Source: Shinella sp. WSJ-2
GTDB taxonomy: Bacteria > Pseudomonadota > Alphaproteobacteria > Rhizobiales > Rhizobiaceae
Assembly: GCF_003432075.1 (NCBI RefSeq)
Contig: NZ_QWBU01000012.1
Coordinates: 1 to 64,000 of the forward strand
Direction of reading: 5' to 3'
Length of the DNA stretch: 64,000 nucleotides
Shown here one piece after another: positions 23,204-49,842 of the stretch. How positions within the stretch are numbered: the stretch's first letter is position 1; each line of letters begins with the position of its first letter. A model generated the notes under the pieces. That model saw only the letters and a program-made list of their open reading frames with translations, made no database searches and was not told the origin of the DNA. The translations under genes were made by a program, and so were the position numbers.

Positions 23204-24706
23204 TTACTCCTCGATGCCGAGCTTGGCCTTGACCAGCGCCTGGACGGCCTGCGGATTGGCCTTACCGCCCGTCGCCTTCATGACCTGGCCGACGAACCAA
23301 CCCGCTAGCGTCGGCTTGGCGAGAACCTTGGCGACCTGATCGGGATTGGCGGCGATGATTTCATCCACGGCTTTCTCGATGGCGCCAGTGTCCGTCACCT
23401 GCTTCATGCCGCGGGCTTCGACGATCTCGGCCGGGTTGCCGCCCTCGTTCCAGACGATCTCGAACAGGTCCTTGGCGATCTTGCCGGAGATGGTGCCGTC
23501 CTTGATGAGATCGATGATGCCGCCGAGCTGATCGGGCGAAACCGGAGTCTCTTCAATGGCTTTGCCGTCCTTGTTCAAGGCGCCCAGCAGGTCGTTGATC
23601 ACCCAGTTGGCGGCAATCTTGCCGTCGCGGCCGGCGGCCACGGCCTCGTAGTAGTCGGCAATCGCCTTTTCCGAGACGAGTACGGAAGCGTCGTAAACCG
23701 AGAGACCGAGATCCTTGACGAAGCGGATCTTCTTGTCATCAGGCAGTTCAGGCAGATCGGCGAGCAGCGACGCGACGAACGCGTTGTCGAACTCCAGCGG
23801 CAGCAGATCCGGATCAGGGAAGTAGCGGTAGTCGTGCGCGTCTTCCTTCGAGCGCATGGAACGCGTCTCGCCCTTGCCGGGATCGAAGAGACGGGTTTCC
23901 TGGTCGATGGAACCGCCATCCTCCAGAATGCCGATCTGACGGCGGGCTTCGTATTCGATCGCCTGGCCGATGAAACGGATGGAGTTGACGTTCTTGATTT
24001 CGCAGCGCGTGCCGAAGGGCTCGCCGGGCCGGCGCACGGACACGTTGACGTCGGCGCGCATGGAGCCCTCGTCCATGTTTCCGTCGCAGGTGCCGAGATA
24101 GCGCACGATGGAGCGCAGCTTCGTCATATAGGCCTTGGCCTCATCCGACGAGCGCATGTCCGGCTTGGAAACGATCTCCATCAGCGCGACGCCCGAGCGG
24201 TTGAGGTCGACATAGGACATGGTCGGATGCTGGTCATGCATCGACTTGCCGGCGTCCTGCTCGAGATGCAGGCGCTCGATGCCGATCTCGATGTCCTCGA
24301 AATTGCCCTGGCGATCGGGGCCAAGCGAGATGACGATCTTGCCCTCGCCGACGATCGGGTCCTTGAACTGCGAGATCTGGTAGCCCTGCGGCAGGTCCGG
24401 ATAGAAGTAGTTCTTGCGGTCGAAGATCGAGCGATGGTTGATCTCAGCCTTCAGGCCGAGACCGGTACGGACGGCCTGCTTGACGCATTCCTCGTTGATG
24501 ACGGGCAGCATGCCGGGCATGGCGGCATCGACGAGCGACACATTGGCGTTCGGCGCCTTGCCGAATTCCGTCGAAGCGCCGGAAAACAGTTTCGAATTCG
24601 AAAGGACCTGCGCGTGCACCTCCATGCCGATGATGACTTCCCAATCGCCGGTGGCGCCGGGGATGAAGCGTTTCGGATCAGGGGTGCGGACGTCGACGAG
24701 GGTCAT
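23204..24706 (-). CDS. gatB: Asp-tRNA(Asn)/Glu-tRNA(Gln) amidotransferase subunit B
   Basis: Kinase/transamidase subunit that activates mischarged Glu-tRNA(Gln) or Asp-tRNA(Asn) in the GatCAB complex. 500 residues from the ATG at 24706; the frame is open further upstream but [14 protein letters not shown] fits the rhizobial start. Motifs: [77 protein letters not shown], and the C-terminal YqeY-like tRNA-binding domain ending in [10 protein letters not shown]. It is split from gatCA, which lie at 29.7-31.9 kb, as usual for alphaproteobacteria. Confidence 0.97.
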
Positions 24707-24835
24707 TTTCGGCTCTTGCTGTGCTGTCTTCGGTGCTGTCTCGGTAGAACATATGGGCAGGCGGCGCAAGGTTTTCAGCGGGTGCGTCGCACCGTCGTTA
24801 GCCAAGTCGCAAGCTTGGCTAGCTAAAACCGCATC

Positions 24836-25141
24836 ATGAACATGACGACAGCGCTTCTGATCATTTTCCTTCTCCTCAATATCGTGACGTTCTGCCTCTT
24901 CTGGTGGGATAAGGATGCGGCGCGGAATGGCGGCTGGCGGGTTTCTGAAGCAAGCCTGCTGCAATTCGCCTTCTTCGGCGGCAGCCTAGGTGCCGTTGCC
25001 GCGCAACGCCTGCTGCGGCACAAGACGCGCAAGGAACCGTTTCGCACGTATTTGATGGCGATCCTGATTCTGCACACCGTTTTTGCCCCCGTCGGGCTCA
25101 TTTTTGGTCCCACCATCGTCCGCGTGTTGCTAGCCGGCTGA
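24836..25141 (+). CDS. DUF1294 small membrane protein
   Basis: 101 residues with three hydrophobic stretches: [36 protein letters not shown] and [20 protein letters not shown]. The motif [20 protein letters not shown] followed by HKTRKEPF is the DUF1294 signature. Function unknown; in other proteins the domain is fused to a cold-shock domain, which is absent here. Transcribed away from gatB; ends 57 nt before the Rrf2 gene. Confidence 0.88.
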
Positions 25142-25162
25142 CACCCTTCCAGCCGGCCTGTC

Positions 25163-25198
25163 TTGACAGGCGGCACGATTCGTAACTATTATTGTTAC
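25163..25198 (+). promoter_or_regulatory. Promoter and operator of the Rrf2 gene (possible leaderless mRNA)
   Basis: TTGACA (25163-25168), an 18-nt spacer and TATTAT (25187-25192). The inverted repeat GTAAC-TATTATT-GTTAC (25182-25198) covers the -10 element. The first base after the repeat is the A of the ATG at 25199, about 7 nt from the -10, so the transcript would start at or within a base or two of the start codon. No Shine-Dalgarno is possible. Confidence 0.7.
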
Positions 25199-25642
25199 AT
25201 GAAAAGAAACAGCCGCCTTTCCGCCGTGCTTCATGCACTCATGCATATGGCTGAACGCGAGGTGCCGATGACCTCGGACGATCTCGCGCTCTGCCTCGAT
25301 ACCAATGCCGTTGTCGTGCGCCGCACCATGGCCGGGCTTCGCGATGCCGGCATCGTGCAATCCGGCCGCGGCCATGGCGGCGGCTGGCATTTCGCCAAGC
25401 CGCTTGCCGATATCTCGTTGCTCGATATCTACAATGCGCTCGGCGAACCGATCGTCTTCCAGATCGGCCCGGCGACGGAAATGCCGGGCTGCGTCGTCGA
25501 AAAATCCGTCAACCGCGTTATCGGCGATGCCCTGAAGGACGCCGAGGCAATCCTGATGGCGCGCTTTGCCGGCACGACGCTCGCCGACCTCGCCGCCGAT
25601 TTTCGGGTGGCGGCGAAACATTGCCGGGCCGATACCGGCTGA
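25199..25642 (+). CDS. Rrf2-family transcriptional regulator
   Basis: 147 residues, MKRNSRLSAVLHALMHMAER being the canonical Rrf2 winged-HTH opening, with VVRRTMAGLRDAGIVQSGRG as recognition helix and wing (GHGGGWHFAKPL). One Cys near residue 42 (ALCLDTNAV) and a second in MPGCVVEKS are present, but not the three-Cys cluster of IscR/NsrR, so an Fe-S cofactor is doubtful. This resembles the YwnA/redox-type branch. It is followed by a flavoprotein that it probably controls. The start is fixed by the promoter/operator abutting the ATG. Confidence 0.9.
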   Translation: MKRNSRLSAVLHALMHMAEREVPMTSDDLALCLDTNAVVVRRTMAGLRDAGIVQSGRGHGGGWHFAKPLADISLLDIYNALGEPIVFQIGPATEMPGCVVEKSVNRVIGDALKDAEAILMARFAGTTLADLAADFRVAAKHCRADTG

Positions 25643-25726
25643 CGGCAACCAAATCCCAAGACCTGCATCGAACGCCCTGTAACCGCCGGGCGAACGATGC
25701 CGCACGTTCCATCGAAAGGATCCACC

Positions 25727-26629
25727 ATGACCGAAGATGCCATCATCATCGGCGGGGGCTTTGCCGGCCTCTCCGCAGCCATGCAGCTCGCCCGCGCCCG
25801 CCGCCGCATCACCATTCTGGACACCGGCCTGCCACGCAACCGCTTTGCCGCCCATTCGCACGGCTTCCTTGCGCAGGACGGCCGGCCGGGCGGCGAGATC
25901 CTCGCCGATGCCCGCCGTCAGCTTGCCGCCTACGAGACCGTCACCTTCGGCGATGTGCCGGCCGAAAGGCTGGAGGGAGAGCGGGATGCGTTTTCGGTGA
26001 TCACCGGCGACGGCGGGCGGATCGATGCGCGGCGCGTGCTGCTCGCCACCGGCTTCGAGGACAAGCTGCCCGATATTCCCGGCCTTGCGGAACGCTGGGG
26101 CAAGACGGTGCTGCATTGCCCCTATTGCCATGGCTACGAGGTCGGCGGCGGGCCGGTCGGCGTGCTGGCGCGAACCTCCGAGGCCGCACGTTTTGCGGCG
26201 GTCGTGGCCGATTGGGGCAACGTCACGCTCTTCACCAATGAAGTCCCGGAGCCCGATGAAAAGGACCTCGCCGTGCTCGAGGCGCGCAATGTGAAACTCC
26301 GCCCCGGCCGCGTCACCGCGATCTCGGATGGTCCCGATGGTTTGCTCTCCGTCGAGACCGGCCCCGGCATTCCCGCCCTCGTCAAGGCGCTGTTTGTTGC
26401 ACCGGAAGCGCGCGTGCGCAGCACGATCCCGGACGATCGCGGCCTGAAGCGAAGGGAAACGCCCATCGGCAACATTCTGCACACCGACGACATGGGCCAA
26501 ACCTCATTGCCCGGACTCTACGCAGCCGGTGATATCGCTCTCGGCGCGGCCAATATTTCGCTTGCCTCGGCCAATGGCGTGAAGACCGCCGTCTTCCTGC
26601 ACCACTCGCTGATCTGGCCAACGCATTGA
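25727..26629 (+). CDS. Thioredoxin-reductase-like NAD(P)/FAD oxidoreductase
   Basis: 300 residues. The FAD-binding GGGFAGLSAAMQLARARR is at about 8-25, the redox pair CPYC in LHCPYCHGYE at about 130, an unusual NAD(P) domain loop GVLARTSEAARFAAVVAD lacking the full GxGxxG, and the C-terminal FAD motif GLYAAGDIALGAANISLA. Low-molecular-weight thioredoxin reductases have CAxC; CPYC is typical of a side branch often paired with Rrf2 or other redox regulators. The exact electron acceptor is unknown. The ATG at 25727 has AAAGGATCC upstream. It lies 84 nt after the Rrf2 gene on the same strand. Confidence 0.88.
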   Translation: MTEDAIIIGGGFAGLSAAMQLARARRRITILDTGLPRNRFAAHSHGFLAQDGRPGGEILADARRQLAAYETVTFGDVPAERLEGERDAFSVITGDGGRIDARRVLLATGFEDKLPDIPGLAERWGKTVLHCPYCHGYEVGGGPVGVLARTSEAARFAAVVADWGNVTLFTNEVPEPDEKDLAVLEARNVKLRPGRVTAISDGPDGLLSVETGPGIPALVKALFVAPEARVRSTIPDDRGLKRRETPIGNILHTDDMGQTSLPGLYAAGDIALGAANISLASANGVKTAVFLHHSLIWPTH

Positions 26630-26678
26630 CCTTTGCGGACGCCCCGGTTATTTCGAGACGTCCGTAAAAGGAGTTTTG

Positions 26679-26705
26679 ATGTCCAACTCGTCTGAGACCT
26701 GCTGA
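26679..26705 (+). CDS. Candidate 8-residue leader peptide (uORF)
   Basis: ATG at 26679 with AAAAGGAG (26666-26673) five nt before it, coding for MSNSSETC and ending in TGA (26703-26705). A near-perfect ribosome binding site in front of an 8-codon frame, immediately followed by mutually exclusive hairpins, is the layout of a translation-controlled attenuator. The run SSETC-stop suggests a possible response to serine/cysteine supply or to a ribosome-stalling drug; this is inference. Confidence 0.5.
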   Translation: MSNSSETC

Positions 26706-26708
26706 GGG

Positions 26709-26786
26709 CCCTGCCCGCATCATGCTTGCGCGCAGGGTCGAAAAAACGCTGAACCCTGCCACCCCGTGGGTGGCGGACGTTTTTTC
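26709..26786 (+). promoter_or_regulatory. Attenuator-like alternating hairpins ahead of the UPF0386 gene
   Basis: Segment 1 CCCTGC (26709-26714) pairs with segment 2 GCAGGG (26732-26737), extendable to 9 bp with one mismatch. Segment 2 can instead pair with segment 3, a second CCCTGC (26754-26759). Segment 3 overlaps the 5' arm of a terminator-like hairpin: GCCACCC/GGGTGGC (26758-26774) nested in GAAAAAACG/CGTTTTTTC (26740-26748 and 26778-26786), ending in six T. It could alternatively be just the terminator of the flavoprotein gene. Confidence 0.5.
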
Positions 26787-26821
26787 GCGTTCATTCGAAC
26801 GCCCGACGGACACTCAAGACA

Positions 26822-27079
26822 ATGGACATTTCGCGCGCCGAACAGCGCATTCTTCACCTGCTCGCCCAGGGCGGCAGGATCGACATCGAAAAAGACGACA
26901 ACCGCAAGATCATCACCGTCGCCTGCATCACGCGGGACGGCTGGCGTGCCGGTGGTCTCGACCTCGACCTCTTCCGCAAGCTGAAACGCCGGCGCTGCAT
27001 CGCCTCCTCCGGCGGCAGGCCCTACCGCATCACGCAGCGCGGCCTGGTTCTGGTGCGGTCGCAGCTCGACAATCAGTGA
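26822..27079 (+). CDS. UPF0386 / YjhX-family protein
   Basis: 85 residues, MDISRAEQRILHLLAQGGRI, then ACITRDGWRAGGLDLDLFRK and IASSGGRPYRITQRGLVLVR. A small winged-helix-like fold with a MarR/ArsR flavour. The family includes E. coli YjhX, described as the toxin of a pair with the acetyltransferase YjhQ; rhizobial members are conserved as single genes and their role is unknown. There is no strong Shine-Dalgarno in front of ATG 26822 (ACTCAAGACA). Its leader contains the uORF/attenuator described separately. A GNAT gene lies convergently 33 nt downstream. Confidence 0.85.
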   Translation: MDISRAEQRILHLLAQGGRIDIEKDDNRKIITVACITRDGWRAGGLDLDLFRKLKRRRCIASSGGRPYRITQRGLVLVRSQLDNQ

Positions 27080-27112
27080 AAGACGGGAGGCGTGGCGAAA
27101 GCTGCGCCTCCT

Positions 27113-27625
27113 CTAAAATCTGCCCGGCCCGTAGCCGATCGGTTCATCGGCGACGAGCTGCCGGCGCAGGCCGACCGATTCCACGTCCCGGTCGAGACGT
27201 TCGGAGTAATCGACCGAAAGCCAGTTCACCGAATAGCCGTGCTTCTGGAAGAAACCGACGGCGGCCGTGTTGCGCGCATGGGTCTGCAGCCGCGCCGCCT
27301 CGAAACCGGCGGCGACGATCTCCTCTTCCATGGCGGCAAGCAAAGCGGCACCGAGGCCCTTCTTCTGCTGGGGTGGATCGACCCAGAGATCGCTGATCTC
27401 GTCGTCCAGCGCTTCGCGCGAGGCCCAACCGGCCAGCACGCCCTCACTCTCCACGACGCTGACGCGCAGCCATTTTTCGGCAAGGAACTGCTGGAAGGCA
27501 TTGCGGGCATGTTCGCTGCGCACCTGAAGATCGACGACGCCGACGACGGCCTGCCCCCAGGCTCTCACGCCGATCTCGACGAGTTCCGGAACATCATCTC
27601 CACGGACATTGCGAACAGTGATCAT
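27113..27625 (-). CDS. GNAT-family N-acetyltransferase
   Basis: 170 residues from the ATG at 27625 (MITVRNVRGDDVPELVEIGV). The acetyl-CoA binding segment is ISDLWVDPPQQKKGLGAALL (Q-K-K-G-L-G) and the C-terminal part has NTAAVGFFQKHGYSVNW. It is convergent with the UPF0386 gene and transcribed in the direction of slipin but downstream of slipin's terminator. The closest-named partner of YjhX in E. coli is a GNAT enzyme, so the neighbourhood is suggestive; orientation argues against a simple toxin-antitoxin operon. Confidence 0.88.
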   Translation of the reverse strand: MITVRNVRGDDVPELVEIGVRAWGQAVVGVVDLQVRSEHARNAFQQFLAEKWLRVSVVESEGVLAGWASREALDDEISDLWVDPPQQKKGLGAALLAAMEEEIVAAGFEAARLQTHARNTAAVGFFQKHGYSVNWLSVDYSERLDRDVESVGLRRQLVADEPIGYGPGRF

Positions 27626-27710
27626 GCATCGGCCCTTTCCCATGCCATGAAAGCATTGCGCAGGCGGCTTGGCGAGGGAGACGAAAGGCTATCCACGGCG
27701 ATGATGGGAC

Positions 27711-27744
27711 TAAAAACGAAACCGCCCGGTCTTTCGACCGGGCG
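27711..27744 (-). terminator. Slipin gene terminator
   Basis: On the minus strand CGCCCGGT, loop CGAAAG, ACCGGGCG (27744-27723) is followed by GTTTCGTTTTTAG. An 8-bp GC stem with a T tract, six nt after the slipin stop codon. Confidence 0.88.
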
Positions 27745-27749
27745 ATCCC

Positions 27750-28895
27750 CTACTTGTCGCGCAACTGCACGAGGTCGTTCATCAGGCCCGCCGTCCCGTT
27801 GTGGATGGTCAGGCGCTCGACCTTGCCGGCAATGGCTTCCAGAGCCTCCAGCTCCTTCAGCCGCAGCATGACCGGGTTTTCGGCCATCACCTTCGCCGTG
27901 TTCAGGAGCGAACGGGTAGCGTTCGTTTCCTCGCGGCGCCGGATGACATTGGCCTCAGCCTGCTTTTCAGCTGCGACCACCTGGTTCAGGATATCGCGCA
28001 TCTCGCCCGGCAGGATCACGTCCTTGAGCTCGATGGCCGAGACCTCGACCCCGATGGCGGCCATGTCGGCACGAACCTTCCCGGCGGCTTCCGCATTGAC
28101 CGTCACCTTGCGTTCAAGGATCTGGTCAAGCGTCAGCGTGCCGAGCGTCTGGCGGAAGGCGAACTGCAGAGCACGGTACAGCGCGTCCGTGAAGTCCTTG
28201 ACCTCCGACACCGCCTTCAGCGGATCGACGACGCGGTATTCGGCGGAAATGTTCACCCGGATCGTGACCTTGTCACGGGTGAGCAGTTCCTGACCGGTCA
28301 CGTCGAGCGACTGGCGCTTCAGATCCACCACGCGCACCTGGACCGTCTTGCCGACATTCCAGAAGGCGTGCATGCCCGGCTGCAGCATGCGCTGATGCGT
28401 TCCGTCAACGAAGAGCAGACCGACCTGACCGTCATTGACGAGGAAGGCGGTCGTGAGCTCCGTGCGGCGTGCGCGCATCAGCCGGCGCATCAGCTCCGGG
28501 TCGATGTCGAGCCGTTCCGTCAGGTCGACACGCGTCTCGGTCCACGGACCGGCAGCGTTCCAGACCACCAGCTTCTGGTTCGGCGCCAGCACCGTGTAGA
28601 GTTCACCGTCGCGCTCGACGACCGAGATTTCCCGGGCCGTGGTGCGGATGACCGTCAGTTCACGCTGTGCGACCTCCGGCAGACCATCGAACAACGGCTT
28701 CTCGTAGGCCGACGCGAAAACCGGCCGGTTCATGTCGTGACGCTCCAGCTCGAGCAGCCCGCGGCGGTTCGGCAGGCTGTGTTCGCCCGCGCCGAAAATA
28801 CCGAGAACCGTACCCTTGTACAGGGCGAGCACCCGCTCGTTGGCCTTCACGAGGACGCGCTTGCGCCCCAAAATCATATCGAGAAACATCGTCAT
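27750..28895 (-). CDS. Slipin-type SPFH (Band 7) protein
   Basis: 381 residues from the ATG at 28895 with AAGGAG upstream. No clear transmembrane helix is present at the N-terminus (MTMFLDMILGRKRVLVKANE), so it may be peripheral. The SPFH domain spans about 120-290: GLLFVDGTHQRMLQPGMHAF, VRVVDLKRQSLDVTGQELLT, KVTIRVNISAEYRVVDPLKA, then YRALQFAFRQTLGTLTLDQI and EVSAIELKDVILPGEMRDIL. The C-terminal helix EKQAEANVIRRREETNATRS is the coiled-coil oligomerisation region. Upstream on the same strand lie a 380-nt structured leader and two tRNA-like RNAs; this pairing is known from RtcB RNA-repair loci, but no RtcB, RtcA or RtcR gene is in the window. Confidence 0.93.
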   Translation of the reverse strand: MTMFLDMILGRKRVLVKANERVLALYKGTVLGIFGAGEHSLPNRRGLLELERHDMNRPVFASAYEKPLFDGLPEVAQRELTVIRTTAREISVVERDGELYTVLAPNQKLVVWNAAGPWTETRVDLTERLDIDPELMRRLMRARRTELTTAFLVNDGQVGLLFVDGTHQRMLQPGMHAFWNVGKTVQVRVVDLKRQSLDVTGQELLTRDKVTIRVNISAEYRVVDPLKAVSEVKDFTDALYRALQFAFRQTLGTLTLDQILERKVTVNAEAAGKVRADMAAIGVEVSAIELKDVILPGEMRDILNQVVAAEKQAEANVIRRREETNATRSLLNTAKVMAENPVMLRLKELEALEAIAGKVERLTIHNGTAGLMNDLVQLRDK

Positions 28896-29264
28896 TGGTC
28901 TTGCTCCTTCGGTCATACGCTACGTCATGAACCGATTGTCCTTTCGTTTACGGTTGCTGTTTCATCGGCGGCATGCTTGCCGCCAGTCTCCGTGAAACCC
29001 CTGGTCGCCCGGGAAACCTGCGGGCGGGGCATGCGAATGCAATGATCCGGGAACCGGTTGACGGCCATCGGCGGCGGGTTTCCGGGAGAGGACCGCGCAG
29101 CCTTTCGGCGGGCTTTGGAGCACGGCTCCATCGCTGGCCGAAAGGCGGCTTGATCGTCACCGGCAACCGGACCGCACATGTCCGGCGTCGGGCTTTCCGA
29201 AGAGGGACCTTGCGGCCCTACCCCGGTCTACCGTCCGCAGTCCGGTCCCCGGACCGGATAAGAG
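28896..29264 (-). other. Structured, gene-free leader between tRNA-like RNAs and slipin
   Basis: About 370 nt with no credible ORF but several stable inverted repeats: GCCTTTCGGC/GCCGAAAGGC (29100-29109 and 29137-29146) enclosing GGAGC/GCTCC, TCCGGTCC/GGACCGGA (29241-29258), and CCGGAC/GTCCGG near 29167-29185. It could be a 5' UTR of slipin processed from the tRNA-like precursor, or a further structured RNA. Only the structure is seen; the role is unknown. Confidence 0.5.
28971..28985 (-). promoter_or_regulatory. Weak sigma-54-like promoter element upstream of slipin
   Basis: Minus strand TGGCGGCAAGCATGC: GG and GC doublets exactly 10 nt apart, matching TGGC and three of four bases of TTGC, about 76 nt before the slipin ATG. 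Noted because RtcR-controlled RNA-repair operons use sigma-54. In GC-rich DNA such a match is not rare. Confidence 0.25.
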
Positions 29265-29281
29265 ACAGCTTGGAAGGCTGT
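29265..29281 (-). other. Exact copy of the tRNA-Gly(UCC) anticodon arm
   Basis: On the minus strand ACAGC-CTTCCAA-GCTGT forms a 5-bp stem with a 7-nt loop carrying U33 and UCC. Fifteen nt (CAGCCTTCCAAGCTG) are identical to the anticodon arm of the real tRNA-Gly at 755-828. It begins at the 3' end of tRNA-like RNA B and overlaps its last bases. It may be a tRNA remnant or an anticodon-stem mimic. Confidence 0.55.
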
Positions 29282-29346
29282 TGGAGAAGGATTTGAACCT
29301 TCGACTTCAGAATCTAAATCTGATGCTCTACCACTGAGCTATCCAA
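29279..29346 (-). ncRNA. tRNA-like RNA B (degenerate, anticodon-position UAG)
   Basis: The D arm GCTC/GAGC with loop AGTGGTA, the anticodon arm TCAGA-TTTAGAT-TCTGA and the T arm GAAGG-TTCAAAT-CCTTC are all perfect. The acceptor stem has only five pairs (TTGGA/TCCAA), no CCA follows, and the 5' end abuts the CCA of RNA A. UAG would read the Leu codon CUA, but there is no long variable arm (4 nt) as bacterial tRNA-Leu requires. It therefore looks like a structured tRNA mimic rather than a decoding tRNA. Confidence 0.75.
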
Positions 29347-29421
29347 TGGAGCAGACAACGGGAATCGAACCCGCGACCTCCGAACGTCTCGTTCGGCGCT
29401 CTACCACTGAGCTAGGTCCGC
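29347..29421 (-). ncRNA. tRNA-like RNA A (no U33, closed anticodon loop)
   Basis: 75 nt with encoded CCA. The acceptor GCGGACC/TGTCTGC has a mismatch at 7-66 and discriminator T73; the D arm GCTC/GAGC and T arm GCGGG-TTCGATT-CCCGT are normal. The anticodon arm reads CCGAA-CGAGACG-TTCGG: position 33 is G instead of the universal U, and the loop can close further (CG/CG) to a triloop AGA. Such an RNA should fold and be matured like a tRNA but could not decode. It is directly followed by RNA B. Confidence 0.78.
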
Positions 29422-29537
29422 AAACGGTCTTTCTGGTGCGGGGCATCCGTACACGACGACGGCAGGGCCGCCTCGCGCGGGAGGAGCAGAAAACTCCATC
29501 CGTTGACATCCGCACCGGCTGAACGACCGGGAGGGCG

Positions 29538-29566
29538 CGTTTATTCGCGTCGTGGAAAAGGTTCAA
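29538..29566 (-). promoter_or_regulatory. Possible promoter of the tRNA-like RNAs
   Basis: Minus strand TTGAAC (29566-29561), 17 nt, TAAACG (29543-29538), followed by a GC-rich stretch CGCCCTCCCGG as in stable-RNA promoters. The -10 match is poor. It lies about 115 nt upstream of RNA A. Confidence 0.3.
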
Positions 29567-29591
29567 GCCGAAAACGGCACGCGTAAGTTTC

Positions 29592-29616
29592 CGTAACGGC
29601 AAGTGTTGCCGTTACG
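29592..29616. repeat. Perfect 11-bp inverted repeat downstream of gatA
   Basis: CGTAACGGCAA (29592-29602), GTG, TTGCCGTTACG (29606-29616). It lies 44 bp after the gatA stop codon and upstream of the tRNA-like promoter region. There is no T tract on either strand, so it may be a Rho-assisted 3' end or a protein-binding site rather than a classic terminator. Confidence 0.6.
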
Positions 29617-29659
29617 ACACAACTTTGCGGATAGGCGGTCTATGGGGCGGAGGCGCCCC

Positions 29660-31141
29660 TTACCACCACTTGGCCGGGGTGAAGCGGCCGGCAGCCTGCT
29701 CGATGACATGGGCTGTCTTGAAGAGGCTTTCCTCCTCGAAGGGCTTGCCGATGAGCTGGAGGCCGAGCGGCAGGCCCTTGTGATCCAGGCCGGCGGGTAC
29801 GGACAGGCCCGGCAGGCCGGCCATGTTCACGGTCACCGTGAAGATATCCTGCAGGTACATCTTGACCGGATCCGACGCCAGATCCTCGTCGGCGATGCCG
29901 AAGGCCGACGACGGCGTGGCTGGCGTCAGAATGGCATCGACGCCGGCATTGAAAGCCAGTTCGAAGTCGCGCTTGATCAGCGTACGGACCTTCTGGGCCT
30001 GCAGGTAATAGGCGTCGTAGTAGCCGGCCGAAAGCACATAGGTGCCGATCATGATACGGCGCTTGACCTCGGTGCCGAAGCCGGCGGCGCGGGTCTTCTC
30101 GTACATGTCGACGATATCCTTGCCGTCGACGCGCAGGCCGTAGCGCACGCCGTCGTAGCGGGCGAGGTTCGACGATGCCTCGGCCGGAGCCACGATGTAG
30201 TAGGCCGGCAGGGCGTATTTCGTGTGCGGCAGCGAGATATCGACGATCTCGGCACCGGCGTCCCTCAGCCAGGCGATGCCCTGCTGCCAGAGCGCTTCGA
30301 TCTCGTCCGGCATGCCATCGACGCGATATTCGCGCGGAATGCCGATGCGCATGCCTTTCAGCGACTGCCCAAGCGCGGCTTCGTAATCCGGCACCGGCAA
30401 ATCTACGGAGGTCGTGTCCTTGGCGTCGACGCTCGCCATCGACTTCAGCATGATCGCGGCATCGCGCACGTCGCGGGCGATCGGGCCGGCCTGATCGAGC
30501 GAAGAGGCGAAGGCGACGATGCCCCAGCGCGAGCAACGGCCATAGGTCGGCTTGATGCCGACGGTGCCGGTGAAGGCGGCGGGCTGGCGGATCGAGCCGC
30601 CGGTATCGGTTGCGGTCGCACCCGCGCAAAGGAAGGCCGCGACGGCCGCGGCCGAACCGCCGGAAGAACCGCCCGGCACCAGATCGGCGTTGGAACCTTG
30701 CGCGCGCCACGGGTTCTTGACGGCGCCGTAATAGGAACTCTCGTTGGAGGAGCCCATGGCGAACTCGTCCATGTTGAGCTTGCCGAGCATGACGGCGCCA
30801 TCGTTCCAGAGGTTCTGGGTGACGGTCGATTCGTATTTCGGCTTGAAGCCGTCGAGAATGTGGCTGCAGGCCTGCGTATGAATACCGTCGGTGGCAAAGA
30901 GGTCCTTGATGCCGAGCGGAATGCCCTCCAGCGCGCCGGCCTTGCCGTCGGCGATACGGGCGTCGGAAGCCTTGGCCATCTCGCGCGCCTTCTCGGGCGT
31001 GACGGCGACATAGGCGTTGATCGCCGGATTGGCCGCCTCGATCGCGGAAAGATACGCGTCCGTCAGCTCGACCGCCTTGATCTCCTTGGCGGAGAGCTTT
31101 TCGCGGGCTTCGGCAATGGTCAGGCGGGTCAGGTCGGTCAT
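29660..31141 (-). CDS. gatA: Asp-tRNA(Asn)/Glu-tRNA(Gln) amidotransferase subunit A
   Basis: Glutaminase subunit of GatCAB. 493 residues from the ATG at 31141 (a GTG 12 nt upstream is the alternative). Amidase signature: Lys in [14 protein letters not shown], the cis-Ser region [14 protein letters not shown] and the nucleophile Ser in [15 protein letters not shown], i.e. the full Ser-cisSer-Lys triad. The tail [20 protein letters not shown] is normal. It lies third in the minus-strand run gatC, GNAT, gatA. Confidence 0.97.
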
Positions 31142-31159
31142 GGGTGCGGTCACTTCAGG

Positions 31160-31624
31160 TCAGGCAGCACGAAGCTGCTTTTGATAGAATACGGAATAGG
31201 GTGAATCCGGGTAGTCGAGCACGGGGCCGCAGCGGGTAAAACCCGCCTTCTCATAGATCGCCCATGCCGCCGGATGCTGGTCGCCCGTTTCGAGCACGAG
31301 CGTCTCCAGCTCCTCCCGTTCGGCGGTCTCCAGGATCTTGTCGAGCACATGCCGGCCGACGCCTTTCCCCTGCCAGGCCGGCCGGGTGAACATGCGCTTG
31401 ACTTCGCCCACCGTGTCGGAGTGGCGCTTCAGCGCGCCGCAGCCGATCGCGGCGTCGCCGTCGCGCGCGATCCAGACGGTTACCGTGGGATCGGCCATCT
31501 CCTCCACGGTGAGGTTATAGCACGCCTCCGGCGGCGACAGCGCAAGCAGGACCGTGTTCAGCTCTGCGATCAGCGTGCGAACCTCATCCGTAAGCGGGCT
31601 TTCGACGTCGATTGTGACGGTCAA
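31160..31624 (-). CDS. GNAT-family N-acetyltransferase inserted between gatC and gatA
   Basis: 154 residues. Acetyl-CoA binding motif VKRMFTRPAWQGKGVGRHVL (Q-G-K-G-V-G) and HPAAWAIYEKAGFTRCG. It is 3 nt after gatC and 18 nt before gatA, so it is embedded in the amidotransferase operon and must be co-expressed. Substrate unknown. A different GNAT gene directly follows gatB at 22.7 kb, so both Gat loci carry one. Confidence 0.92.
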   Translation of the reverse strand: MTVTIDVESPLTDEVRTLIAELNTVLLALSPPEACYNLTVEEMADPTVTVWIARDGDAAIGCGALKRHSDTVGEVKRMFTRPAWQGKGVGRHVLDKILETAEREELETLVLETGDQHPAAWAIYEKAGFTRCGPVLDYPDSPYSVFYQKQLRAA

Positions 31625-31627
31625 GGA

Positions 31628-31915
31628 TTACTCCACAACCTTCGGCACCTGGAAGAAATTGCGGTCGGTGGCCGGGGCGTTGGCGACGATCGCGTCGGCC
31701 TTGTTGCCGTCGTTGACGATGTCCTGGCGCTTGCGCATCTCCATCGGGGTGACTGAGGTCATCGGCTCGACTCCCTCGACATTCACCTCGGAAAGCTGCT
31801 CGACGAAGCCGAGGATACCGTTCAACTCGCCGGTCATCCGGCTTGCCTCTTCCTCGCTGACAGCGATGCGGGCAAGGCGCGCGACGCGCTTCACAGTGGC
31901 TAGATCTACGGACAT
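31628..31915 (-). CDS. gatC: Asp-tRNA(Asn)/Glu-tRNA(Gln) amidotransferase subunit C
   Basis: 95 residues. Small linker subunit that wraps GatA and GatB. It has [51 protein letters not shown] and the C-terminal [17 protein letters not shown], the usual GatC end. First gene of the gatC-GNAT-gatA operon. Confidence 0.96.
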
Positions 31916-49249: not shown

Positions 49250-49380
49250 AAAACGCCGCTCCCTTGCCGGGAGCGGCGTTGAATGGGGGTCGGTCAGTAC
49301 GACGACGGCACGAGGATTCCGTATTTGTCGTAACCGACCGACCGACCCCACGACCCAGGAGATGCGGCGGACCTAGCATC
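49250..49380 (-). ncRNA. Candidate trans-acting small RNA between rpmG and pleD
   Basis: Read on the minus strand: a long hairpin with outer arms GGGGTCGGTC/GACCGACCCC (49340-49349 with 49286-49295), inner TACGAC/GTCGTA and ACGG/CCGT, then a 12-bp terminator stem AACGCCGCTCCC/GGGAGCGGCGTT (49280-49252) and TTTTTGATTC. No ORF with coding character. Several 'alpha-r' family sRNAs are encoded in rhizobial intergenic regions with this hairpin-plus-terminator plan; I suspect but cannot confirm that it is one of them (perhaps alpha-r45). The 5' end is uncertain. Confidence 0.6.
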
Positions 49381-49842
49381 ATGGGGTAACCGGTTGTGCG
49401 GGCTTGTTTGCCGCCCATGAGTTGAGCATCGCGCCAAAACGAAAAAAAATCAACGAATTCTTAACGTTTCCGCCAAGACTCCTTGTCTCATAGTTAACCG
49501 CCGAGCGGCTGATTGTCTCAGCAAGCGGCATCTACGTTATAGAAGATAACAGTAAGCTCGCCCCAGCAAAGCAACCATTGCGCGCACTTAATACAACCTT
49601 AAAAAATAGACGCAACTTCGCAAGGCGTGAGTACATTTTGTACAACCCGTTGAAATCCATCGGAAAAGTAAATCGTACGATTTATAGCCAAATTTGACCA
49701 CACGGGCCACAGTATGAACCCTCGATTTGGTTCATGTCCGGAAAAATCTTCTGAGGGACAAGCGCCCTAAAAATTAGGCACTTGCCCGAAAAGCGTTTGA
49801 GCCTGTGGAAAAAGCGTAGGCGGAAGTCAGTTCGGATGTGGC
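49381..49842. other. Gene-free AT-rich stretch between the sRNA and pleD
   Basis: No coding sequence is supported. It contains a 16-bp perfect palindrome TAAATCGTACGATTTA (49669-49684), ATGAACC-N8-GGTTCAT (49714-49735) and a hairpin (49755-49787) with loop AAA and arms GGGACAAGCGCCCTAA/TTAGGCACTTGCCC, with two bulges. The last lies 56 nt after the pleD stop and may be the 3' end signal of divK-pleD. The stretch should also hold the sRNA promoter, which I could not identify. Confidence 0.5.

What the first reader, a model, noticed from the sequence alone, without database searches (positions are those of the whole stretch)
27750..29421. Slipin gene preceded by two tandem, decoding-incompetent tRNA-like RNAs, without RtcB
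Sequence: on the minus strand RNA A (29421-29347) and RNA B (29346-29279) abut, both with intact D and T arms. RNA A lacks U33, and its anticodon loop closes to a triloop. RNA B has a 5-bp acceptor and no CCA, and its UAG anticodon position does not fit a short variable arm. The next gene in the same direction is an SPFH/Band-7 protein. Established knowledge: a comparative survey of RNA-repair systems (Burroughs and Aravind, as I recall it) reported SPFH/Band-7 modules with a novel cognate tRNA-like molecule near RtcB-type ligases. Here no RtcB, RtcA or RtcR is within the window. Inference: this is an orphan or core-genome form of that system, perhaps a sensor or scaffold for tRNA damage using the tRNA-like RNAs as decoys or cofactors.
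Basis: partly seen in the sequence, partly recalled or inferred. Interest (0 to 1): 0.88.

Follow-up and report, generated by a model that had tools for sequence, protein, structure and literature searches.

The report
Slipin gene with tRNA-mimic leader RNA
A compact, patchily distributed bacterial module pairs a slipin-like protein with a large structured leader RNA that carries two tRNA look-alikes, whose anticodon loops change much faster than their surroundings; this suggests a replaceable bait for enzymes that attack tRNAs.

Summary
Two abutting tRNA-like RNAs (A 29421-29347, B 29346-29279, minus strand) precede a slipin/SPFH gene, and the genome has no RtcB match. The linkage is real: a slipin-blind covariance scan of 199 Rhizobiales genomes gave 15 compact pairs of at least 85 bits; 14 of 15 lie directly upstream of a slipin homologue. 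The object is larger than described: A and B sit in a leader of about 600 nt with a strongly covarying 3' domain, and a same-genus genome lacks the whole 1.95-kb unit. The main new finding is that the scaffold is kept while the anticodon loops are hypervariable: among close relatives the B loop differs about 13 times more per site than the rest, and B changes at least 40 times among only 13 anticodons. In nine non-alpha proteobacterial loci the slipin shares its neighbourhood with RtcB (9 of 9) and RtcR (6 of 9), so the RNA-repair link is real and the alphaproteobacterial form is a stand-alone branch. Most likely it is a tRNA-damage sensing or protection module with exchangeable anticodon-loop baits. 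That function is inferred; no expression or biochemical data were available.

The parts
27706..29652 (-). whole module, defined by the empty site in a same-genus genome (G507)
   Evidence: blastn: G507 matches the window up to 29653 and again from 27705, the two matches 11 nt apart in G507
29592..29616 (.). palindrome CGTAACGGCA-N5-TGCCGTTACG, operator-like, about 25 nt upstream of the -35-like element
   Evidence: single copy in the 64-kb window; exact in 5 of 6 Shinella rows examined. At a similar distance from A, 16 of 79 rows (other genera) carry GTTGC-N6-GCAAC
29541..29567 (-). sigma70-like promoter (CTTGAA ... GAATAA), putative start near 29530
   Evidence: -35/-10-like elements seen by eye directly before the 5' domain in A3; inferred
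29422..29530 (-). structured 5' domain of the leader RNA (boundaries approximate)
   Evidence: conserved by eye in loci from Rhizobiales to sphingomonads; RNAalifold hairpins on 31 sequences, some outer pairs broken in up to 15
29347..29421 (-). tRNA-like RNA A: encoded CCA, irregular loop without U33
29279..29346 (-). tRNA-like RNA B: truncated acceptor, no CCA, 7-nt tRNA-like anticodon loop (TAG here)
29044..29255 (-). 3' structured domain of the leader RNA, closed by a 14-bp stem
   Evidence: 28 of 51 pairs with two-sided changes, 0 of 500 shuffles reach it; model R2 finds it in 32 of 49 sources, none in the other 17
28920..28928 (-). two-codon mini-ORF ATG-ACG-TAG in a hairpin just before the slipin ribosome-binding site
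   Evidence: [AG]TG-NNN-stop in 68 of 79 rows; hairpin in the window's fold, by eye elsewhere
27750..28916 (-). slipin/SPFH protein (ORF 388 aa; likely start 28895); no transmembrane helix predicted
   Evidence: PF01145; hydropathy; AlphaFold2 model pLDDT 82.8
27711..27744 (-). intrinsic terminator (CGCCCGGTC-GAAA-GACCGGGCG, T-rich tail), read by eye
   Evidence: sequence

Best explanation
The module is a stand-alone (RtcR/RtcB-free) branch of the SPFH-plus-tRNA-like system that elsewhere shares gene clusters with rtcR, rtcB and rlaP. Shown: one discrete 1.95-kb unit; a leader of about 600 nt with a covarying 3' domain, two tRNA mimics and a mini-ORF before slipin; the anticodon loops of the mimics are hypervariable on a fixed scaffold. 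Inferred mechanism: the mimics display exchangeable anticodon loops as baits for ribonucleases that cut tRNA anticodon loops (toxins, phage-response or competitor nucleases). Cutting of the bait in the leader, or binding of the leader RNA by a slipin ring, signals or limits tRNA damage and adjusts slipin production through the mini-ORF hairpin. Loop turnover follows the nuclease repertoire each lineage meets.
For: Blind linkage: 14 of 15 compact pair hits of at least 85 bits in 199 Rhizobiales genomes lie next to slipin; none of the 15 lower-scoring loci fetched in the same call do. Covariation of pair and 3' domain. Hypervariability: 0.296 and 0.178 differences per site in the B and A loops against 0.023 elsewhere among 58 close (not independent) locus pairs; in L001/L002 nothing outside the loops differs while both loops do. 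Mean column changes on the slipin tree: A loop 19.2, B loop 17.7, B anticodon stem 1.9, B T stem 1.0. B loops stay tRNA-like: 7 nt in 78 of 79, U33 in 67 of 78, 13 anticodons with at least 40 changes; 10 of 29 distinct loops match a genuine loop at positions 33-38, null mean 4.3, 9 of 5000 as high. Context: in nine non-alpha phylum loci RtcB is within the fetched 13-15 kb in 9 of 9, RtcR in 6 of 9. [quoted passage not shown] Anabaena slipin alr0740 is co-repressed with rtcB and a tRNA operon (PMC10272220, passages). Patchy presence and the empty site.
Against: No expression, cleavage or binding data. Single columns outside the loops also change often (A D-loop 29 and 22, T-loop 25 and 23, A T-stem 24), so the loops are fastest as regions, not alone. 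B labels are still somewhat clustered by descent: 40 changes, fewer than every one of 200 shuffles (minimum 42). 19 of 29 distinct B loops do not match a genuine loop at 33-38, and the genuine list is that of the window's genome only. A loops (3-7 nt in the 79 rows) are not anticodon-like and could be drifting. PADLOC has no model for the slipin or for Citrobacter RlaP; association with defence genes was not sought. No RNA ligase sits in the module; RtcB occurs in only 5 of 14 and 5 of 16 alphaproteobacterial carriers. The 3' domain was not recognised in 17 of 49 sources, among them all five plasmid-collection records and nine of the divergent Rhizobiales slipin loci.
Confidence: 0.42

Rival explanations
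1. Cis-regulatory leader: the structured RNA, tRNA mimics and mini-ORF together control slipin synthesis, for example by binding a tRNA-handling protein (RNase P, CCA-adding enzyme, synthetase, EF-Tu) or by ribosome stalling on the two-codon ORF. The mimics are receptors, not baits.
For: Everything lies in the slipin 5' leader after a promoter-like site; mini-ORF in 68 of 79 rows just before the slipin ribosome-binding site; a palindrome upstream.
Against: Does not predict that the loops are the fastest regions, nor changes among a restricted set of anticodons. The mini-ORF's second codon is mostly ACG, ACT or AGT and does not follow the B anticodon.
Confidence: 0.25
2. The mimics are processing or folding modules (tRNA-like punctuation, RNase P/Z sites) and their loops drift neutrally because they never decode.
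For: A has variable loop length and often no U33; its acceptor helix covaries and it encodes CCA in the window; no decoding is needed. Some other loop columns change as often.
Against: The B loop keeps length 7 in 78 of 79 rows, mostly U33 and purine 37, and uses 13 anticodons where 40 random draws would give about 30 (rough, since changes are not independent draws).
Confidence: 0.2
3. RNA-protein particle: the leader RNA acts in trans as the RNA part of a soluble SPFH ring or cage, loosely as in vaults.
For: No transmembrane helix; three beta-repeats (my reading), SPFH domain and long helix in the model; Foldseek hits stomatin (E 6.2e-15), HflK/C and major vault protein (E down to 7.5e-11).
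Against: The N-terminal repeats alone match nothing in the PDB at E 0.001 or better, so the vault match may rest on the SPFH-plus-helix part alone. RNA binding is unknown.
Confidence: 0.1
4. Ordinary or decaying tRNA genes next to an unrelated slipin.
For: tRNA tools score both above threshold.
Against: Linkage, abutting arrangement, flanking domain and covariation are conserved; B lacks an acceptor end and CCA; anticodons vary within a genus.
Confidence: 0.02

Closest known systems
Rtc RNA-repair gene clusters with an SPFH gene (rtcR, slipin, rtcB, rlaP; P. aeruginosa PaFlo8 in the rtc locus, PMC13086221, passages)
   Same: Homologous slipin (37-39% identical to the window protein in the E. 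coli, Citrobacter, Burkholderia and Photobacterium copies), with pair-model hits of 76 bits or more upstream in 6 of 9 non-alpha phylum loci and in Photobacterium
   Different: Here no RtcR, RtcB or RlaP beside it; a promoter-like site of sigma70 type instead; a large 3' RNA domain not recognised in the five plasmid-collection records
SPFH/Band-7 with a cognate tRNA-like molecule
   Same: Presumably the same kind of pairing
   Different: Cannot be compared; loop hypervariability and the leader RNA could not be checked against it
Y RNA YrlA (RF02553)
   Same: tRNA-like module linked to the RtcR/RtcB world (PMC7790460, passages)
   Different: Only 26.1 bits against a gathering score of 69; two tandem mimics
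Bacterial stomatin/HflK-type SPFH proteins
   Same: SPFH domain and helix
   Different: No transmembrane helix; three N-terminal beta-repeats
Lambda bar minigenes (recalled)
   Same: A two-codon ORF, start-X-stop
   Different: Here in a hairpin before a downstream gene, conserved across genera

Membership tests
SPFH/Band-7 (slipin) | Band_7 domain PF01145 above the curated cut-off | tested here: met
   102.9 bits, cut-off 23.6
SPFH/Band-7 (slipin) | N-terminal membrane anchor typical of stomatins | tested here: not met
   highest 19-residue hydropathy mean 1.25
RtcR/RtcB RNA-repair cluster with SPFH and tRNA-like | SPFH gene preceded by tRNA-like RNA | tested here: met
RtcR/RtcB RNA-repair cluster with SPFH and tRNA-like | RtcR next to the module | tested here: not met
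   no match in genome G000; 2 of 14 pair-bearing Rhizobiales genomes have RtcR at all
RtcR/RtcB RNA-repair cluster with SPFH and tRNA-like | RtcB or RlaP nearby | tested here: not met
   no RtcB match in G000; tblastn at E 1e-15 finds no RtcB or RlaP in the fetched stretches of L001-L080 (0 of 80) or in the window
RtcR/RtcB RNA-repair cluster with SPFH and tRNA-like | sigma54 promoter before the tRNA-likes | tested here: inconclusive
   sigma54-like sites seen by eye in L172 and L173, none seen by eye in the window; no motif search run
Functional elongator tRNA | 7-bp acceptor, CCA, U33 and variable arm fitting the anticodon | tested here: not met
   A lacks U33; B has 5 bp, no CCA, and a short variable arm with a Leu anticodon
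YrlA Y RNA (RF02553) | Rfam gathering score | tested here: not met
   26.1 bits, gathering 69
Major vault protein | MVP-type N-terminal repeats | tested here: not met
   no PDB match at E 0.001 or better for residues 1-199; the full-length model does hit MVP
Known anti-phage systems (PADLOC-DB 2.0.0) | profile match of the slipin | tested here: not met
   0 families

The most novel reading that the evidence does not exclude
The slipin leader is an undescribed large structured RNA class carrying two tRNA-mimic domains. Its anticodon loops are replaced under arms-race selection, making a bait RNA, with a soluble SPFH ring as its partner, that detects or absorbs anticodon nucleases: an RNA immune receptor with a hypervariable recognition loop.
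Probability: 0.3. Interest if true: 0.93.

Novelty: new variant of a known kind. Interest (0 to 1): 0.78.

Why it matters
If the loops are baits, each loop records which tRNA was attacked in that lineage, and the target tRNA of unknown toxins could be read from genome sequence. It would also give the slipin found near Rtc RNA-repair genes a cognate RNA and a testable role, and add a large structured RNA to those known. Annotators should note that ARAGORN calls these two genes tRNA-Ser and tRNA-Leu.

Tried and rejected
Burroughs and Aravind 2016 was looked up by DOI and PMC id and is not held; nothing here rests on it. Slipin with RtcB and tRNA-like: 0 papers. SPFH with tRNA-like and RtcB: 0. 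Slipin with tRNA-like: 0. Slipin with RtcB: 2. Slipin with RtcR: 1. Vault with bacteria, SPFH and RNA ligase: 0. The others were. The library is open-licence papers only, so this is no proof that nothing is in print. Papers were seen as listings or passages, none whole.

Vault idea: attractive from the full model but the N-terminal repeats alone did not match; kept only as a rival. Mini-ORF codon matching the B anticodon: no correspondence. Pairing between A and B loops: looked for by eye in several loci, none seen. Co-occurrence with RtcB in Rhizobiales: 5 of 14 pair-bearing against 33 of 185 others, no strong association. Phages: no slipin match. L151, the one compact pair without slipin, is a phage-like locus with tandem tRNA-Asn and tRNA-Arg calls.

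Dropped before counts: L030 (the contig ends before the pair) and L078 (only a partial B-like match, 23 bits) are not among the 79 rows (78 loci plus window). One search set aside a tRNA-Stop loop from the genuine list and one 6-nt B loop. The R2 training set (A4) holds 30 rows and R1 (A1) 33, all from the same 80 loci plus window; some loci are probably the same species as training rows and were not removed. 12 of the 16 phylum loci were fetched wide.

Full report
CHECK. ARAGORN and Rfam both see the two RNAs at the stated place, and the gene behind them is a Band_7 protein. Genome G000 has no RtcB match and no RtcR match.

LINKAGE. The best 80 slipin relatives (of 179 found) were fetched. 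A covariance model of the pair (R1, 33 training rows from these loci and the window) finds a full-length pair in 78 of the 80; L030 is cut by the contig end and L078 has only a partial B-like match. In a search that knew nothing of slipin, R1 was run over 199 Rhizobiales genomes, own genome included. Fifteen compact hits of at least 85 bits came out and 14 have a slipin homologue, 38-100% identical, immediately downstream. None of the 15 lower-scoring loci fetched in the same call has one; the exception L151 is phage-like with ordinary tandem tRNA calls.

THE OBJECT IS A LARGE LEADER RNA. Flanks of the pair are conserved as well: a 5' domain of about 110 nt behind a promoter-like site, and a 3' leader of about 340 nt. 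The core of the latter (29255-29044) is a domain of about 212 nt closed by a 14-bp stem. On 30 sequences, 28 of 51 pairs change on both sides, 95.3% of cells pair, and no shuffle of 500 and no slid structure comes near. Its model (R2) matches 32 of 49 sources at E 0.001 or better, three of them training rows and some others probably the same species as training rows; the 17 without a match include all five plasmid-collection records and nine divergent Rhizobiales slipin loci. In 199 Rhizobiales genomes R2 rings in 4, all among the 14 pair-plus-slipin genomes; ten of those 14 are not found, under the strict filters of that scan. So the 3' domain is shown for the closer alphaproteobacterial loci and open for the rest. 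Rfam 15 has no family above its gathering score there except tRNA. Just before slipin, a Shine-Dalgarno-like site and a two-codon ORF ([AG]TG-NNN-stop) are found in 68 of 79 rows, in a hairpin in the window's fold.

BOUNDARIES AND MOBILITY. A genome of the same genus without slipin (G507) matches the window up to 29653 and again from 27705, 11 nt apart, so the module is a clean 1.95-kb presence/absence unit between gatA and a GNAT gene. The slipin is in 12 of 247 family genomes at E 1e-60, 5 of 289 class genomes at 1e-40 and 16 of 299 phylum genomes at 1e-50, own genome counted each time. gatA, the GNAT gene and gatB lie in the fetched stretch of 11 of 80 loci and not in that of the others. 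An upstream palindrome is present: GTTGC-N6-GCAAC in 16 of 79 rows, against one such site elsewhere in 830 kb of the same loci, and a different palindrome at a similar distance in 5 of 6 Shinella rows.

HYPERVARIABLE LOOPS. In Shinella species the pair is nearly identical except for the anticodon loops. On a tree of 79 slipin genes the A and B loop columns change 19.2 and 17.7 times on average, the B anticodon stem 1.9, the B T stem 1.0; single columns in the A D-loop (29, 22), the T-loops (25, 23) and the A T-stem (24) change as often. Among 58 locus pairs with at most 5 differences elsewhere (pairs share loci and are not independent), the per-site difference is 0.023 outside the loops, 0.296 in the B loop and 0.178 in the A loop; the B loop differs at 3 or more positions in 26 and is identical in 22; L001 and L002 differ only in the loops. 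B is not free: 78 of 79 loops have 7 nt, 67 of 78 keep U33, position 36 is U or G in 75 of 78, and only 13 anticodons (mostly Asn, Met, Leu, Thr, Ile, Lys, Arg types) are used, with at least 40 changes. Shuffled labels need 48.5 on average, minimum 42 of 200, so some clustering by descent remains. Against the genuine loops of the window's genome, 10 of 29 distinct B loops match at positions 33-38, null mean 4.3, 9 of 5000 as high; 19 do not match. A loops (3-7 nt in these rows) are not anticodon-like.

THE PROTEIN. No transmembrane segment. The model (pLDDT 82.8, pTM 0.59) shows, as I read it, three beta-repeats, the SPFH domain and a long helix. PDB sequence relatives are mainly stomatin and HflK. 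Foldseek adds major vault protein, but the repeats alone match nothing at E 0.001 or better.

LINK TO RNA REPAIR. Twelve of 16 phylum loci were fetched wide. In the nine that are not alphaproteobacterial, RtcB lies in the 13-15-kb stretch in 9 of 9 (about 3.8 kb off in L219, upstream of slipin in L224, downstream in the others), RtcR in 6 of 9 (partial, at the stretch's end, in L219), RlaP in 5 of 9. In the three alphaproteobacterial ones none was found. R1 hits upstream reach 76 bits or more in 13 of 16 phylum loci (6 of the 9 non-alpha); the other three (57, 52 and 34 bits) are no better than single ordinary tRNAs (compare 54-55 bits). Citrobacter has rtcR, slipin and RlaP, with only a degenerate T-arm-like sequence seen by eye and no tRNA or pair call. 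In E. coli, 1,621 of 5,426 genomes hold at least 80% of the queried stretch. In the 80 loci L001-L080 no RtcB or RlaP was found in the fetched stretches, and one partial RtcR-like match, L063, not resolved. RtcB anywhere in the genome: 5 of 14 and 5 of 16 carriers (the two sets share two genomes). The Rtc operon is regulated by damaged tRNAs (PMC7790460: title and abstract start, passages), an SPFH gene lies in the rtc locus of P. aeruginosa (PMC13086221, passages), and an Anabaena slipin is co-repressed with rtcB and a tRNA operon (PMC10272220, passages).

INTERPRETATION. Shown: unit, structured leader, tRNA mimics, loop turnover, RNA-repair kinship. Inferred: baits for anticodon-loop nucleases with slipin as RNA partner and response protein. 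I hold this at 0.42; a purely cis-regulatory leader (0.25) and neutral loops on a structural element (0.2) are the main rivals. Filed as a new variant of the SPFH/tRNA-like kind, not as a member of RtcR/RtcB clusters, whose defining genes were tested and not found.

Noticed in passing
window 49283-49389 (-): Rfam match to Atu_C6/EcpR1 sRNA, 82.7 bits.
   Followed up: no
L006-L012, L017, L018, L026, L031, L068, L073, L075-L077, 173-211 nt upstream of A: Palindrome GTTGC-N6-GCAAC, exact in 16 of 79 rows and almost absent elsewhere in the same loci; an unlinked regulator is likely.
   Followed up: partly
window 23204-31915: Module sits in the gat region in the 11 loci whose fetched stretch carries gatA, GNAT and gatB (L001-L011: Shinella, Rhizobium, Metarhizobium and others); a favoured site or an ancestral position with many losses.
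   Followed up: partly
L218 5669-5883: Three tandem tRNA-like calls, not two, upstream of slipin in an RtcR/RtcB-type locus.
   Followed up: no
L215, L217, L218, L219, L220: Anticodon calls starting with A (aag, aga, agt, aat), which bacterial tRNAs almost never use (recalled), in non-alpha and distant alpha tRNA-likes.
   Followed up: no
L151 1501-1654: Phage-like locus with two nearly abutting tRNA calls (Asn, Arg) that score 102 bits with the pair model.
   Followed up: partly
L078 4377-4738, L084 3137-3201: Slipin loci where only one tRNA-like was recognised; L078 still has the 3' domain (72 bits).
   Followed up: no
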